64,000 nucleotides of DNA, from NCBI GenBank assembly GCA_902515985.1, contig CABXWY010000003.1, positions 85,735 through 149,734 of the forward strand, in the 5' to 3' direction. This DNA is from an uncultured Pelagibacteraceae bacterium (GTDB lineage Bacteria; Pseudomonadota; Alphaproteobacteria; Pelagibacterales; Pelagibacteraceae). A program made the translations under genes and the position numbers. The notes under the pieces were generated by a model that was given only the letters and a program-made list of their open reading frames with translations, made no database searches and was not told the DNA's origin. Positions within the stretch are counted from its first letter, which is position 1. Each line of letters opens with the position of its first letter. This document shows, piece by piece, positions 12,748 through 20,530 of this stretch.

Positions 12748-13521
12748 TTAACTTGTTGCAAGCATTTTCTTAATCGATGCAATCGCTTTTGCTGGATTTA
12801 ATCCTTTAGGACATGCATTTGTACAATTCATGATGGTATGGCATCTATACAATTTAAGCTCATCAGCAACTTTTTTTAATCTCGCTTTTCTATCCTCATC
12901 CCTGCTATCAATTATCCATCTGTAAGCCTGCAGCAAGACTGCTGGTCCTAAATATTTTTCCCCATTCCACCAATAACTAGGACATGAAGTTGAACAGCAG
13001 GCGCACATTATACATTCATATAAACCATCTAATTTGGCTCTATCTTCCTTGGACTGCAGGTTTTCTCTTTCAGAAATATTTTTTGAATTTTTAAGCCAAG
13101 GTTCAACTGACTCATACTGTTTATATAAAGTACTTAAATCCCCTATAAGATCTTTTAAAACTTTTAAATGTGGTAGTGGATAGATATTTATATCACCTTT
13201 AATTTCTGAATGCGATTTGGTACATGCAAGTCCATTTTTTCCATCCATATTCATAGCACAAGATCCACAAACTCCATGAGCACAAGATCTTCTGTAAGCA
13301 ATTGAGGGATCAATTTCATTTTTAATCTTATTTAAAATATCTAAAACTTTAGATGGACAGTTGTTCATATCTACTTCATAAGTATCTATTCTCGGATTCT
13401 CTTCTGTAGAGGGATCCCACCTATACACATTAACTTTTCTTAAATTTTTTGAACCAGTTTTATCCTTATAATAATTACCTTTTTTAACTTTTGATTTTTC
13501 AGGTAATCTTATTTGGACCAT
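12748..13521 (-). CDS. sdhB: Succinate dehydrogenase iron-sulfur subunit
   Basis: 257 residues. The [2Fe-2S] ligands appear in [16 protein letters not shown], and the [4Fe-4S]/[3Fe-4S] ligands in [17 protein letters not shown] and [17 protein letters not shown]. The tryptophans after CPSY and the His in CHT correspond to quinone-site residues (E. coli W164, H207), so ubiquinone binding looks intact. Its ATG overlaps the sdhA stop by one base. It carries electrons from the SdhA flavin to the SdhCD membrane anchor. Confidence 0.96.
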
Positions 13522-15296
13522 TAATATACTCTTTCTTGAGGTGGAAAATATTGTACTTCATTTGTAAGTGTTGAAATATTCACAGGCCTATAGTTTATCT
13601 TGGTTTTTGAGCCATCGCACCATGATAAAGTATGTTTCATAAAAGATTTATCATCTCTTTTTGGAAAATCTTCCCTAGCATGTGCACCTCTACTCTCTTT
13701 TCTATTATAAGCAGAGTCCATTGTTGTAATTGCTTGTCTAATCAAATTATCAAATTCAAGTGTTTCGACCAAGTCGGTGTTAAAAATCAATGAATTATCT
13801 TTTACTGAAATATCATCCATTCCGTAAAAAGACTTCCTTATTTCCTCTACACCCTCTTTTAAAGTTTTTTCTGTTCTAAAAACTGCACATTTTGATTGCA
13901 TTGTTTTTTGCATAGCTAATCTAAGATCAGCAGTTGGACTTGAACCTTTTGAGTTTCTCAATTTATCAAATCTATCTAAGCATTTATCTGTTTCACTTTG
14001 AGAAATCTCCTCATGCTTCATGCCGGGTTTAATTAATTCAGATGCTCTTTTTGCTGCGGCTCTTCCAAATACAACTAGATCTATTAAGGAATTTGATCCT
14101 AATCTGTTTGCTCCATGTACAGAGACACAAGCCGCTTCTCCTATGGCCATAAGTCCAGGTACTGTTTTAGTAGACCCATTCATTGTAATTACCTCTGCTT
14201 TATAATTAGTTGGTATCCCACCCATATTATAATGAACAGTTGGGACAACTGGAATTGGCTCCTTAGTGACATCAACATTTGCAAATAATTTTGAAGCCTC
14301 AGAAATTCCTGGCAACCTGTCCTCAATTACTTTTTTATCTAAATGATTTAAGTGTAAATGAACATGGTCTTTATCCTTTCCTATTCCTCGACCTTCATTA
14401 ATTTCAACTGCAATTGATCTACTTACAACATCTCTTGACGCAAGATCTTTTGCTTTTGGTGCATATTTTTCCATAAACCTATCGCCTTTAGAGTTTACTA
14501 AATATCCTCCTTCTCCTCTTACACCTTCAGAAATTAGAGTTCCATGTCCATATATTCCTGTAGGATGAAACTGTACAAATTCCATATCTTGAAGCGGCAA
14601 ACCTGCTCTCAAAACCATTGCGTTACCATCTCCAGTACATGTGTGGGCAGATGTAGCTGAATAGTAAACTTTTCCATAACCTCCTGTTGCAATTATTGTA
14701 ATGTGGGATCTAAATCTATGAATTGTCCCATCATTTAAATTCCAGGCAATTAAACCTTTGCACTCTCCATTTTTCATTAACAAATCTAGTGCGAAATATT
14801 CTATAAAAAATTCAGTATTATGTTTAAGAGCCTGACCATAAAGAGTATGTAAAATTGCATGTCCAGTTCTATCTGCTGCAGCGCAAGTTCTTTGAACTGT
14901 CTCATTTCCGTAATTTTTCGTCATTCCACCAAATGGTCTCTGATAAATTTTTCCATCTTCTGTTCTGCTAAATGGAACGCCATACTTTTCTAATTCTAAA
15001 ACTGCTCTTGGTGCTTCCTTGCAAAGATATTCAATACAATCTTGATCTCCCAACCAATCTGCTCCTTTTACAGTATCATACATGTGCCATCTCCAATCAT
15101 CTTCGCCCATATTTCCAAGAGCTGCTGAGATACCTCCTTGCGCAGCAGATGTATGACTTCTAGTTGGGAACACTTTAGATATGCAAGCAGTCTTTAATCC
15201 AGCTTCACTTAACCCTACTGCAGCTCTAAGTCCAGATCCTCCAGCACCTAAAACAACAACGTCGTATTCGTGATCTATAATTTTATAACTGCTCAT
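13521..15296 (-). CDS. sdhA: Succinate dehydrogenase flavoprotein subunit
   Basis: 591 residues, standard length. The FAD site [13 protein letters not shown] is N-terminal, the covalent-flavin histidine lies in [12 protein letters not shown], and the active-site region includes [25 protein letters not shown] and [18 protein letters not shown]. It oxidises succinate to fumarate on the cytoplasmic face of the membrane. Its start overlaps the end of sdhD by four bases (ATGA-type), in the order sdhC-sdhD-sdhA-sdhB. Confidence 0.96.
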
Positions 15297-15622
15297 AAGC
15301 TTAGTTTGTATAATATAAATATTGTAAAAATTGGCATTATAATAGCAAATAAATACAGGGTTTTGTTTGCGACATTTTTTATTTTTTGATCAACTATATA
15401 ATCCTCAAATACCTCACTTATGCTTAATGATGAGTAAAAATAGAGAAATATGACAAATAAAGAGAACATAAATTTGTTGGGTTGGTCAGTAAAAAAGGTG
15501 CTTACTTCTTCAAAGTCTAAATTATATATAGATACAAGTTTAAATAAGAACCAGAGCATTAATGGCAGCATAACCACAACACTTAATTTTAAAAAAATCC
15601 ACTTTTTTGTAGCACTAATCAT
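15293..15622 (-). CDS. sdhD: Succinate dehydrogenase membrane anchor SdhD, heme-ligand histidine apparently replaced
   Basis: 109 residues with three hydrophobic segments (about 10-32, 50-66, 84-107), between sdhC and sdhA, so assigned by position and topology. The conserved DY before the third helix, whose tyrosine lines the quinone site, is present in VFEDYIVD (D74, Y75). In E. coli and Rickettsia SdhD the heme b histidine lies 11 residues before that aspartate; here the position is Tyr63, and the helix reads [11 protein letters not shown] with no histidine. The whole protein contains no histidine. Together with the change in SdhC this suggests a complex II without normally ligated heme. 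Confidence 0.85.
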
Positions 15623-15623
15623 A

Positions 15624-16004
15624 TTAAAAAAGATTTCCCACTAGGTAAATTAATACTGTTAGTATAAAAGAACCAAATATAACAATTAGTCCAGTTATAT
15701 TTGCAACTTTAAGATCAAATCCTATACCGTAATCCCAAAATAAGTGTCGTATTTCACTCAATATCTGGAACGAAAAAGACCAAACTATTCCTAATATTAA
15801 AAATTTTCCAAAAAAAGAATTTAAAAAAATATATATTATTTGATAATTTTCATCACCCAAAAGTAGATAAGCAACCCAAAAACATATTAATGTTACGGCT
15901 GTTAAATTAATAATACCAGCTATTCGATGAGAAATTGAAACTAAAGAGGATATATGCCAATTATAAATTTGAATATGAGGTGATAAAGGATTTTCATTTT
16001 TCAT
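15624..16004 (-). CDS. sdhC: Succinate dehydrogenase cytochrome b556-type subunit SdhC, heme-ligand position changed
   Basis: 126 residues, three predicted membrane helices. The family signatures PLSPHIQIY and SISHRIAGI are present; serine and arginine of the latter are quinone-site residues. The third signature is EIRHLFWDYGIGF. In E. coli SdhC the heme b ligand His84 lies seven residues before the histidine of IRH; here that position is Gln80 (sequence FSFQILSEIRH, codon CAG). So the signature histidine remains but the axial ligand does not. sdhC is first of the sdh genes and overlaps the stop of asd by four bases. Confidence 0.92.
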   Translation of the reverse strand: MKNENPLSPHIQIYNWHISSLVSISHRIAGIINLTAVTLICFWVAYLLLGDENYQIIYIFLNSFFGKFLILGIVWSFSFQILSEIRHLFWDYGIGFDLKVANITGLIVIFGSFILTVLIYLVGNLF

Positions 16005-17019: not shown

Positions 17020-18132
17020 CTAAATGAAAGGTAAATCGCAAACTTTTCCAGAGCAATTTTTACCATCTATAGATACCGAAAATTCCTGAGAAGCTTTAAA
17101 ATATGGTTTATTTACCATAGCTATGCCAATTACTTGTTTAAACATTGGATTATACGATCCTGATCTCAACTCACCAATTAAATTTTTATCTTTATCAAAC
17201 ATATTAATAGACCCTGTTACACTTATTTCTTTAGCATTTATTTTAACTCCCATTAACTTTTTCTTAATACCTTCAGATTTAATTTTTTTAAGCTCTTCTT
17301 TTCCTAAAAAATTAATGTCGTTATCTAAATTCACATACTTGTCAAAACCGCATTCTAACGGATTGTCGCCTATATCCATATCATTGCCATAAGATAATAA
17401 AGAACTTTCCAATCTCTCAATTAAATTAGGGCATCCTGGTTTTAAATTAAATTCATCCCCAATTTCAAATAATTTATCATACAAAGCCAAACCGGCTTCA
17501 GTATGCTGCATATAAACCTCAAAACCACCTTGCTTTGACCACCCTGATCTAGCTATTAAATGCTTTGCTCCACCAAATTCATAGTAATCGAAACCGAAAA
17601 ATTTAAGATCTTTTATTTTTGGACCCAAAACTTTTGCCATTAAGTCATTAGACTTTGGACCTTGAACAGAAAATATATCAACTTTTGCCTCAAATATATT
17701 TACATCAAAATTATTTCCTATCGCTAAACCCTTTGCAAATAACTCTACATCTGAGTCCGATAGTGATATCCACCATCTATCTTCGGCTAACTTTAAAATT
17801 ACAGGATCATTTATTAATTTTGCTTTATCATCTATAATTGGTGCATAATAACATCTTCCAATTTTTGCTTTGGATAAATCTCTACATGTCATTAATTGAA
17901 CTAATTTATAAGAATCTTTACCATTAATTTCTGTTTGTCTTTGTACTGCAGCATCCCAAACTTGAACATGATCTTTTAAATGCTGATAGAGTTCCTCTAA
18001 TGGTCCACCAAACCTAGTTGGTAAAATCATATGGTTATAAACTGTATAAGCAGAGGCTCCTTGTTTTTCTATTCTAGATGTATAAGGAGTTCCTCTAAGT
18101 CTTCTTGATTTAGATAAAAAAAAGTTTTTCAT
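17020..18132 (-). CDS. dmdA: Dimethylsulfoniopropionate demethylase
   Basis: 370 residues of the GcvT/aminomethyltransferase fold. The start ([29 protein letters not shown]) and conserved blocks such as [25 protein letters not shown] and [14 protein letters not shown] match SAR11-type DmdA better than GcvT. DmdA moves one methyl of DMSP to tetrahydrofolate, giving 3-methylmercaptopropionate and 5-methyl-THF. The following step enzymes (acyl-CoA synthetase, acyl-CoA dehydrogenase) lie immediately upstream, supporting the assignment. It overlaps the alpha/beta hydrolase gene by four bases. An aminomethyltransferase of other substrate is the alternative but unlikely in this context. Confidence 0.93.
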
Positions 18133-18905
18133 TTATTTAAAAATTCTATTACAGATTTTCTCATTTCAAAAGCGCTTTCAAAAATTATCATGTGTCCACA
18201 ATTATTGATAATTTTTACTTCTGAGTCTGAAATTTTTTCTGCCATTTTTTTTCCTATTTCTAGTGGAACCATTTTATCAAGATCACCTAAAATACATAAA
18301 GTAGAGCACTTTATTTTTTCAAGAGAATCTTTCCCGGACTTATAATTGTTACAGGCATTTAAGTCTACATACAAAATTTCTCTAATTTCTCTTGTTGAAT
18401 TAATAATTTTTTTTACAGGATTTCCTCCTATAAATGCCTTCGAACCTTCGTAACCCCATTTCATCATTAGGTGTATAGATTTCTCATCCCCATTAAATGC
18501 TAGATCTAAAAGATCTTGATTAACAGGAAGTTTATAAGAGCCAGAAACGAGAACCAGTTTATCAACTAAATTTGGGTATTTAGATGCAAAATCAATTCCT
18601 ACAAGACAACCTTGTGAATGCCCAATAAAAGTGGCCTTTTCTATTTCAAGTTTTTTGATTAAATCAGCTACCCAATCTGATATTCCTTCGATTGTTTCTA
18701 TTGCAGGACCATCAGAATTACCATGACCGGGTAAATCTATTGAGAAAACATTAAATCCTTTAGAGGCATAAAATTGTTCATGAAGCGACCAAACAATATG
18801 AGTTAATCCACTTCCATGCATTAAAATTATTGAAGGTTTAGATTTATCAATATCCATACCTCCAGTGGATATAAACACGCTTTTATTATTTACCTCTAAA
18901 TTCAG
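18129..18905 (-). CDS. Alpha/beta hydrolase inside the DMSP demethylation cluster
   Basis: The core shows the oxyanion region [12 protein letters not shown], nucleophile elbow GHSQG, acid in LGDLDKMVP and histidine in NNCGHM, a complete catalytic triad. The ORF track starts at a GTG (18876-18878), but the same frame stays open upstream and encodes [10 protein letters not shown] before FISTGG, the usual N-terminus of this hydrolase group. A CTG at 18903-18905 is preceded by AAGGAG with a five-base spacer and overlaps the dmdB stop (CTGA), so I start there; GTG is the fallback. The gene lies between dmdB and dmdA. Family members include thioesterases, C-C hydrolases and esterases. A role in processing methylthio-acyl-CoA or a related ester is inference. 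Confidence 0.85.
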
Positions 18906-20530
18906 TTTGGCTCCTTGGCCTTTTTTCTTAATTCGAACTTTTGAATTTTTCCAGTTGAAGTTTTAGGCAATTCACAAAACTCTATTTTTTTTGGAACTTT
19001 AAAACTTGCAAGTGTTTCTTTACAAAAATCAATTAATTCTTTCTCTGTAGTTGGCTTATCTTTTACTGTTTCAATAAAAGCACATGGCACTTCTCCCCAT
19101 TTTTCATCTGGTTTAGCTACAACAGCTGCAATTGATACTGATGGGTGTTTCGCTAAGGTATTCTCTATTTCAATAGATGAAATATTTTCTCCTCCTGAAA
19201 TAATAATATCTTTTGATCTATCTTGTATTTTTACATAACCATCGGGGTGCATTACTGCCAAATCTCCAGAATGAAACCATCCATCTTTCATTGCTTTATC
19301 AGTTGCATTTTTATCTTTAAAATATCCTTTCATAACAACGTTTCCTCGAATCATAATTTCACCAATAGTTTTTCCATCTCTTGGGACCTCTTTCATTGTT
19401 TCAGGATCCATTATTGTTACACCTTCAGTATTAGGGTATCTTACTCCTTGTCTTGCTTTAATTTCATTTTGTTTTTCTTCTTCAAATTCATTCCATTCAT
19501 CATTCCAAGCGCATTGTGTTACATGACCATAAGTTTCTGTTAAGCCATAAACATGCATCACTTCAAAACCTAAGCTTTTCATTTTTTTAAAAATTATACT
19601 TGGTGGAGGTGCGCCAGCAGTAAGAACATAAACTTTATTTTTTAACTTTTTTCTGTCTGATTCAGGGGCTCCTGTAATCATATTTAATACTATCGGTGCT
19701 CCACCAAAATGAGTTACATTATATTTATCAATTAACTCAAATATTTTTTTAACATCAATATTTCTTAAGCAAATCGTTCTTCCATTTAACATCGGTACAG
19801 TCCATGGATAGCACCAACCATTGCAATGAAACATTGGAACGATAGTTAGAAAGTTTAATCTATTCGGCATATTCCATGCAGTAGCACTTCCAGTAGACAT
19901 TAAATACGAGCCTCTGTGATGATAAACAACCCCTTTTGGATTTCCAGTTGTTCCCGAAGTATAACTTAAGGTAATTGCCTCCCATTCATCATCTGGCATT
20001 TTCCATTTGTAATTTTCATTACCAGAATTGAGGAAGTCCTCATATTCTAGATCACCTATTTTTTCTAATTTAGATTGATCAGCAAATTTATCATGAATAT
20101 CAATTACAATAATTTTTTTATTTATACTTGCTAAAGCTTTTTTAACCTCTGTATGCAATTGTCTATCAACCACTAATACTTTAGCTTCACTGTGCTCTAG
20201 AATATATGTAATTGTTTTTGCATCTAATCGAATATTAATTGTATTGAGAATTGCACCAGTCATAGGAACTGAATAATGTGCCTCGAATATCTCTGGAGTA
20301 TTAAAAGCTAAAAATGAAACTGTATCTCCCTTTTTAATACCAATTTTTTCTAATGCACTCGCAAACTTAAGACATCTCTTGTAAACTTCATTCCAAGTAT
20401 ATTTTCTATCTTCATAAACAATGGCCTCATAATTTGGATAAATATCTTTTGCTCTCTCTAAAAAAGATAGAGGTGTCAAAGGTACATAATTAGCTTTGTT
20501 TTTATCAAGATTTGTTTCGTAATGGCTCAT
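18902..20530 (-). CDS. dmdB: Acyl-CoA synthetase, probable 3-methylmercaptopropionyl-CoA ligase (DmdB)
   Basis: 542-residue AMP-forming ligase. AMP-binding motif LSYTSGTTGNPKGVVYHH, the A5 region HVYGLTETYGH, GWFHSGDLAVMHPDGY, and the C-terminal lysine in TSTGKIQKFELRKKAK are intact. Its position between a DmdC-like acyl-CoA dehydrogenase and dmdA makes activation of 3-methylmercaptopropionate to its CoA thioester the likely job. Paralogues in this superfamily use other medium or short acids, so the assignment rests on context. Four bases separate it from dmdC. Confidence 0.85.
   Translation of the reverse strand: MSHYETNLDKNKANYVPLTPLSFLERAKDIYPNYEAIVYEDRKYTWNEVYKRCLKFASALEKIGIKKGDTVSFLAFNTPEIFEAHYSVPMTGAILNTINIRLDAKTITYILEHSEAKVLVVDRQLHTEVKKALASINKKIIVIDIHDKFADQSKLEKIGDLEYEDFLNSGNENYKWKMPDDEWEAITLSYTSGTTGNPKGVVYHHRGSYLMSTGSATAWNMPNRLNFLTIVPMFHCNGWCYPWTVPMLNGRTICLRNIDVKKIFELIDKYNVTHFGGAPIVLNMITGAPESDRKKLKNKVYVLTAGAPPPSIIFKKMKSLGFEVMHVYGLTETYGHVTQCAWNDEWNEFEEEKQNEIKARQGVRYPNTEGVTIMDPETMKEVPRDGKTIGEIMIRGNVVMKGYFKDKNATDKAMKDGWFHSGDLAVMHPDGYVKIQDRSKDIIISGGENISSIEIENTLAKHPSVSIAAVVAKPDEKWGEVPCAFIETVKDKPTTEKELIDFCKETLASFKVPKKIEFCELPKTSTGKIQKFELRKKAKEPN
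18903..18916 (-). promoter_or_regulatory. Shine-Dalgarno AAGGAG with CTG start codon of the alpha/beta hydrolase
   Basis: On the minus strand AAGGAG (18916-18911), five bases, then CTG (18905-18903) overlapping the TGA stop of the dmdB-like gene. No such strong site precedes the downstream GTG or ATG candidates. The site lies within the last codons of the upstream gene, consistent with translational coupling. It supports a rare CTG start. Confidence 0.5.

What the first reader, a model, noticed from the sequence alone, without database searches (positions are those of the whole stretch)
15434..15767. Succinate dehydrogenase appears to have lost both heme b axial ligands
Aligned on the IRH motif, the SdhC heme-ligand position (E. 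coli His84) is Gln80 (codon CAG at 15765-15767). Aligned on the DY motif, the SdhD ligand position (E. coli His71, YHAMLGMRVVIEDY in Rickettsia) is Tyr63 (TAC at 15434-15436), and SdhD contains no histidine at all. Residues lining the quinone site (SdhC Ser/Arg in SISHR, SdhD Tyr75, SdhB Trp and His) are kept. Losing both ligands together while keeping the Q site argues for selection for a heme-free or differently ligated complex II, perhaps saving iron in an iron-poor ocean. That physiological reading is inference.
Basis: partly seen in the sequence, partly recalled or inferred. Interest (0 to 1): 0.72.

Follow-up and report, generated by a model that had tools for sequence, protein, structure and literature searches.

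The report
Heme-free succinate dehydrogenase in SAR11 bacteria
The most abundant ocean bacteria (SAR11, Pelagibacter) appear to run a core respiratory enzyme, complex II, without the heme that its relatives carry: both iron-holding histidines and the residues that cradle the heme have been replaced, and related lineages lost them separately.

Summary
SdhC Gln80 and SdhD Tyr63 sit exactly at the two heme b ligand positions (E. coli SdhC His84, SdhD His71), and this SdhD has no histidine. It is not an oddity of one genome. All 106 SdhC/SdhD pairs surveyed from the window's genus and two sister genera lack the SdhD ligand, and 85 lack both.

The glycine four residues after each ligand is replaced (SdhC Glu84, SdhD Ser67), and the propionate-binding SdhD Arg20 is now Lys12. 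Of 21 strongly conserved SdhC/D columns, exactly these five changed; the quinone site is untouched.

Yeast complex II, shown by cryo-EM to be heme-free, has the same kind of replacements: Tyr for His, and Glu for the ligand+4 Gly. SAR11 shows the mirror image in SdhC.

Loss was stepwise, SdhD ligand first, and recurred: separately in a second SAR11 family, in one clade III genome, and in several other small-genome alphaproteobacteria.

Best reading: a functional, natively heme-free type C succinate:ubiquinone oxidoreductase. Iron saving is plausible but untested. Spectroscopy is lacking, and a heme held by SdhC His26 is not excluded.

The parts
15624..16004 (-). sdhC, cytochrome b556 subunit (126 aa)
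   Evidence: TIGR02970 108.5 bits against cut-off 52.3; Pfam Sdh_cyt 3.2e-25
15765..15767 (-). SdhC Gln80, at the heme ligand position (E. coli His84)
15753..15755 (-). SdhC Glu84, replaces the ligand+4 Gly (E. coli Gly88); 106 of 106 in the clade
15927..15929 (-). SdhC His26 (E. coli His30, packs on the heme); possible alternative ligand; Thr in 3 of 106 relatives
15924..15926 (-). SdhC Arg27 (E. coli Arg31), Q site and proximal propionate; invariant
15744..15746 (-). SdhC His87 (E. coli His91), distal propionate network; kept
15293..15622 (-). sdhD, hydrophobic membrane anchor (109 aa, no histidine)
   Evidence: TIGR02968 49.8 bits against cut-off 41.8; AlphaFold model pLDDT 91.7 matches E. 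coli SdhD at TM 0.83-0.85, rmsd 1.9
15434..15436 (-). SdhD Tyr63, at the heme ligand position (E. coli His71); Phe in most relatives
15422..15424 (-). SdhD Ser67, replaces the ligand+4 Gly (E. coli Gly75)
15587..15589 (-). SdhD Lys12, replaces propionate-binding Arg20
15398..15403 (-). SdhD Asp74-Tyr75, quinone-site DY motif (E. coli Asp82-Tyr83); kept
13521..15296 (-). sdhA, flavoprotein
   Evidence: TIGR01816 945 bits against cut-off 727; single copy in the genome
12748..13521 (-). sdhB, iron-sulfur protein with Q-site CHTIMNC (E. coli His207) and SYWW kept

Best explanation
This is a functional succinate:ubiquinone oxidoreductase descended from the ordinary type C (one heme, bis-His) enzyme, which has lost heme b. 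Electrons go from succinate through FAD and three Fe-S clusters straight to ubiquinone at the conserved Q site; the heme lies off that path. The space and charges of the heme are replaced by protein. SdhC Gln80 faces SdhD Tyr63 (or Phe) where His-Fe-His was. SdhC Glu84 stands in for the distal propionate and is expected to pair with SdhD Lys12. This is the mirror image of yeast, where Sdh4 Glu112 pairs with Sdh3 Arg97. Shown: the residues, their conservation, the stepwise order and the recurrence. Inferred: absence of heme, the Glu84-Lys12 bridge, and normal activity.
For: Both ligand positions are substituted and fixed in the genus. The five changed conserved columns are exactly the heme ligands, the ligand+4 glycines and the propionate Arg; S27, R31, H91, D82 and Y83 are unchanged. 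Acid at SdhC 88 occurs with Lys or Arg at SdhD 20 in 108 of 109 pairs. SdhA is single copy and the genome has one SdhC/SdhD pair. Yeast complex II with Tyr108 and Glu112 at the matching SdhD positions is heme-free by cryo-EM and spectroscopy (PMC13066397). An E. coli heme-free variant is active and grows on succinate (PMC3290573). Ligand loss and change of a ligand+4 Gly go together in unrelated alphaproteobacteria: 5 of 5 against 1 of 54, p=1.2e-6. Losses recur on the SdhA tree.
Against: There is no spectrum or structure of any SAR11 complex II. E. coli ligand-to-Met mutants were crystallised as intact enzyme (titles), and a reference title reports heme retention in axial ligand mutants, so ligand loss alone does not prove heme loss. 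SdhC His26 and His87 remain near the pocket. Some sister lineages keep SdhC His84 (21 of 106). The Glu84-Lys12 contact was not modelled, because only single subunits could be folded.
Confidence: 0.8

Rival explanations
1. The enzyme still binds heme b, with one or two other residues as ligands (SdhC His26, SdhC His87 or SdhD Met22) or with an open site.
For: SdhC His26 is kept in 103 of 106 and His87 in 106 of 106. SdhD Met22 is a new residue conserved in 104 of 106. E. coli ligand mutants can keep heme (reference title; His84Met and His71Met structures named).
Against: His26 is Thr in 3 of 106. His87 is the propionate-level residue, two helix turns from the iron. Met22 lies ten residues (about three helix turns) from the Arg20/Lys12 level. 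An added Glu next to the propionates and loss of both packing glycines work against a porphyrin. Yeast with the same kind of changes has no heme.
Confidence: 0.13
2. Relaxed constraint: heme became unimportant and the pocket is drifting, with no compensating design.
For: SdhD position 71 varies (F, Y, N) and position 75 varies (S, T, N). E. coli tolerates heme loss.
Against: SdhC Gln (within the genus), Glu84 and Lys12 are fixed at 98-100% although SdhC and SdhD are only about 54-59% identical between members at the median. Acid and base are nearly always paired.
Confidence: 0.05
3. The complex is degenerate or replaced by another succinate dehydrogenase.
For: Both SdhC and SdhD are divergent in sequence from E. 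coli.
Against: All four genes are intact with the Q site and Fe-S motifs kept, and no second SdhA or SdhC/D is present.
Confidence: 0.02

Closest known systems
S. cerevisiae complex II (heme-less type C; PDB 9QDL/9QDM, PMC13066397)
   Same: Tyr at the SdhD ligand position; Glu replaces a ligand+4 Gly; Q site kept; type C anchor fold; descended from a heme-containing form.
   Different: Yeast keeps the SdhC His and has its Glu in SdhD, bridging SdhC Arg (E. coli R31). SAR11 has lost the SdhC His too (Gln) and has its Glu in SdhC opposite SdhD Lys (E. coli R20).
E. coli succinate dehydrogenase (type C, bis-His heme b; 1NEK)
   Same: Gene order sdhCDAB, fold, Q-site residues, Fe-S protein.
   Different: No heme ligands; SdhC G88E, SdhD G75S and R20K.
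E. coli fumarate reductase (type D, heme-less)
   Same: Two small anchor subunits without heme.
   Different: SdhA scores as a forward succinate dehydrogenase, not a fumarate reductase; clearly derived from type C within SAR11.
Tetrahymena and Perkinsus complex II (heme-less)
   Same: No heme in a wild-type succinate dehydrogenase.
   Different: Tetrahymena's membrane anchor is heavily remodelled and cardiolipin takes the heme place (PMC10227065). Here the ordinary fold is kept.

Membership tests
Type C succinate:quinone oxidoreductase | Two anchor subunits with the SdhC/SdhD fold | tested here: met
   TIGR02970 and TIGR02968 above cut-off; SdhD model matches 1NEK/2WDQ chain D at TM 0.78-0.85
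Type C succinate:quinone oxidoreductase | One heme b held by one His from each anchor subunit | tested here: not met
   Gln80 and Tyr63 at the ligand positions; SdhD has no His
Type C succinate:quinone oxidoreductase | Q-site residues SdhC Ser27/Arg31, SdhD Asp82/Tyr83, SdhB His207 | tested here: met
   Invariant in 106 of 106 for SdhC/D; SdhB CHTIMNC
Heme-less type C (yeast-like) | Axial His replaced in at least one anchor subunit | tested here: met
   Both replaced
Heme-less type C (yeast-like) | Acidic residue at a ligand+4 Gly replacing a heme propionate | tested here: met
   SdhC Glu84, in SdhC rather than SdhD as in yeast; that it replaces the propionate is inferred
Heme-less type C (yeast-like) | No heme in spectrum or structure | not testable with these tools
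   Needs purified enzyme
Type D quinol:fumarate reductase | FrdA-type flavoprotein | tested here: not met
   TIGR01816 (forward SdhA) 945 bits, above its cut-off; TIGR01176 (fumarate reductase) 533 bits against cut-off 932.7

The most novel reading that the evidence does not exclude
Heme loss from type C complex II is a repeated, predictable path in streamlined bacteria. Either ligand may go first, a ligand+4 Gly turns acidic or bulkier to replace heme packing or a propionate, and in SAR11 the result is an ocean-dominant heme-free complex II. The ligand+4 residue together with the ligand positions would then be a sequence test for heme content across complex II.
Probability: 0.6. Interest if true: 0.8.

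Novelty: new variant of a known kind. Interest (0 to 1): 0.72.

Why it matters
The role of heme b in complex II is a long-standing open question (PMC3290573). A natural series from bis-His, through single-His, to no-His enzymes inside one bacterial order, with a fixed compensation, lets the role be tested in a native setting rather than in damaged mutants. It also bears on iron and heme budgets of very abundant ocean heterotrophs, and warns against annotating these genes as 'cytochrome b556'.

Tried and rejected
Second sdh copy: none in the genome.

G434 as a heme-less control organism: it lacks ferrochelatase, heme-copper oxidase and bc1 cytochrome b, but has cytochrome bd. It is a probable heme auxotroph, not heme-free, so it is only suggestive.

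Phylogenetic sign test of ligand loss against Gly88 change inside SAR11: only 3 independent pairs, all concordant; too few for significance.

Association with small genomes: the sample was chosen for small genomes, so not claimed.

Primary E. coli heme-mutant papers: not held. Phe enrichment in the core, as in yeast: not clear-cut in the position table. SdhC/SdhD co-folding: not possible with a single-chain folding tool.

Full report
1. The observation. The window holds an intact sdhCDAB operon on the minus strand: sdhC 15624-16004, sdhD 15293-15622, sdhA 13521-15296, sdhB 12748-13521, all above curated family cut-offs. SdhC codon 80 is CAG (15767-15765) and SdhD codon 63 is TAC (15436-15434). 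SdhC Gln80 lies opposite the ligand His of solved SdhC chains in a gap-free stretch. A profile from 25 SdhD sequences aligns end to end without gaps to E. coli SdhD, putting Tyr63 opposite His71. The AlphaFold SdhD model (pLDDT 91.7) has Tyr63 in the middle of helix 47-75 and its best match is an E. coli SdhD chain (TM 0.83-0.85, rmsd 1.9). The genome has one SdhA and one SdhC/SdhD pair.

2. How widespread. I collected sdhCD next to sdhA from the window's own order and outgroups and aligned SdhC and SdhD. Genus of the window (g1): SdhC Gln 50/50 and SdhD Phe 36, Tyr 14. Sister genera g8 and g9: SdhD Phe 24/24 and SdhC His 17, Gln 7. g10: both His kept. g5-g7 and named strain HIMB114 (SAR11 clade III, by my knowledge of the strain): both His kept. 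A second family of the order (f2): SdhD His kept, but SdhC is Tyr (g2, g4), Asn (g11) or His (g3). MAG MED817, inside the clade III branch, has SdhC Tyr and SdhD Asn. All 43 non-SAR11 Proteobacteria keep both His. Group codes are unnamed; calling g1 Pelagibacter is inference from the named loci that fall among it in the tree.

3. Among 108 heme-type pairs, 21 SdhC/D columns are at least 90% conserved. The class-sample part of this set was chosen for having both His; the other part was not. In the 106 pairs of the window's clade, five of these columns fall below 50%: E. coli SdhC 84 and 88 and SdhD 20, 71 and 75. These are the two ligands, the Gly four residues after each ligand, and the Arg that holds the distal propionate (PMC3290573). 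With eight of the 21 columns counted as heme ligand, ligand+4 Gly or propionate/heme-packing residues (my listing), five of five changes inside that set has probability 56/20349 = 0.003 (hand calculation). SdhC Glu84 is fixed (106/106), SdhD Lys12 is 104/106, and Q-site SdhC S27/R31 and SdhD D82/Y83 are 106/106. SdhC and SdhD are otherwise only about 59% and 54% identical between clade members at the median, so this is constraint and not recent drift.

4. A solved precedent. Yeast complex II has Tyr108 at the SdhD ligand position and Glu112 at the ligand+4 Gly. Cryo-EM and spectra show no heme, and Glu112 takes over the propionate's contact with Sdh3 Arg97, the equivalent of E. coli SdhC Arg31 (PMC13066397). 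SdhC Arg31 and SdhD Arg20 are related by the pseudo-twofold axis of the heme (PMC3290573). SAR11 has the Glu at ligand+4 of SdhC and a base at SdhD 20, which is the mirror solution. Acid at SdhC 88 meets Lys or Arg at SdhD 20 in 108 of 109 pairs. The yeast authors already ask for a heme-less subdivision of type C.

5. Order and recurrence. On an SdhA tree the clade with SdhD Phe/Tyr has g10 (both His, SdhD Gly75 to Ser) joined at its base in an unresolved fork. The states SdhC Glu88, SdhD Lys20 and SdhD Phe71 are shared by g1, g8 and g9. SdhC His84 to Gln varies inside g8 and g9 and needs several changes, so it came later and more than once, or was reversed. So the two ligands were not lost together. 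Fewest changes for 'any ligand lost' in this tree: 4. Outside SAR11, five of 59 sampled alphaproteobacterial pairs lack a ligand (L225, L229, L236, L242, L245) and all five also changed a ligand+4 Gly, in four cases to Glu in SdhD as in yeast; 1 of 54 bis-His pairs did (Fisher p = 1.2e-6). The SdhD of L225 and L236 was too divergent for the profile and was aligned by hand on the DY motif. A sixth case, L273, has SdhD Tyr71 with SdhC Cys88.

6. Mechanism. Heme b lies off the FAD to Fe-S to quinone path, and an E. coli heme-free variant supports growth on succinate (PMC3290573). Its main suggested role is stabilising the SdhC/SdhD bundle. The best explanation is therefore a working enzyme in which side chains replace heme packing and charge. 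Not shown: absence of heme, the Glu84-Lys12 contact, activity.

7. Alternative ligation. SdhC His26 (E. coli His30, packed on the heme) and His87 are kept, and SdhD Met22 is new and conserved. His26 is Thr in L018, L050 and L164, so it cannot be a required ligand across the clade. His87 and Met22 are at the wrong height by helix counting. This rival stays at about 13%.

8. Why it happened. SAR11 genomes have no siderophore or heme uptake systems in one survey (PMC4771312), which fits frugal iron use. The window's genome still has ferrochelatase, heme-copper oxidase and cytochrome b, so at most one heme per complex is saved. A small-genome alphaproteobacterium without ferrochelatase, heme-copper oxidase or bc1 but with cytochrome bd (G434) has SdhC Tyr84/Glu88, in line with heme economy as a driver. 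Iron saving remains inference.

9. Novelty. Heme-less wild-type complex II is known in yeast, Tetrahymena and Perkinsus. I found no paper in the held library on heme loss in SAR11 complex II, but most subscription papers are not held. I rate it a new variant of a known kind: a bacterial, double-ligand-loss, mirror-image form, with intermediates preserved.

Noticed in passing
G434 (L236), alphaproteobacterium, 1.4 Mb single contig: No ferrochelatase, heme-copper oxidase or bc1 cytochrome b, but cytochrome bd present: a probable heme auxotroph whose SDH has SdhC Tyr84/Glu88 and SdhD Glu75.
   Followed up: partly
L273 (G580), 1.5 Mb genome of family f149: SdhD Tyr at the ligand position with SdhC His kept, like yeast; SdhC Gly88 is Cys.
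   Followed up: no
L220 (G370): Both heme ligands kept but both ligand+4 glycines are Asp; unexplained.
   Followed up: no
L066 (MED817): A clade III SAR11 MAG that separately lost both ligands (SdhC Tyr, SdhD Asn) while its SdhD Gly75 is kept.
   Followed up: partly
window 17020-20530 (-): DMSP demethylase DmdA (NF009133, 515 bits against cut-off 410), an alpha/beta hydrolase and an acyl-CoA synthetase sit beside asd and sdhCDAB.
   Followed up: partly
window SdhD residue 22 (15557-15559): A Met conserved in 104 of 106 of the clade and absent from the outgroup sequences in the alignment; role unknown.
   Followed up: no
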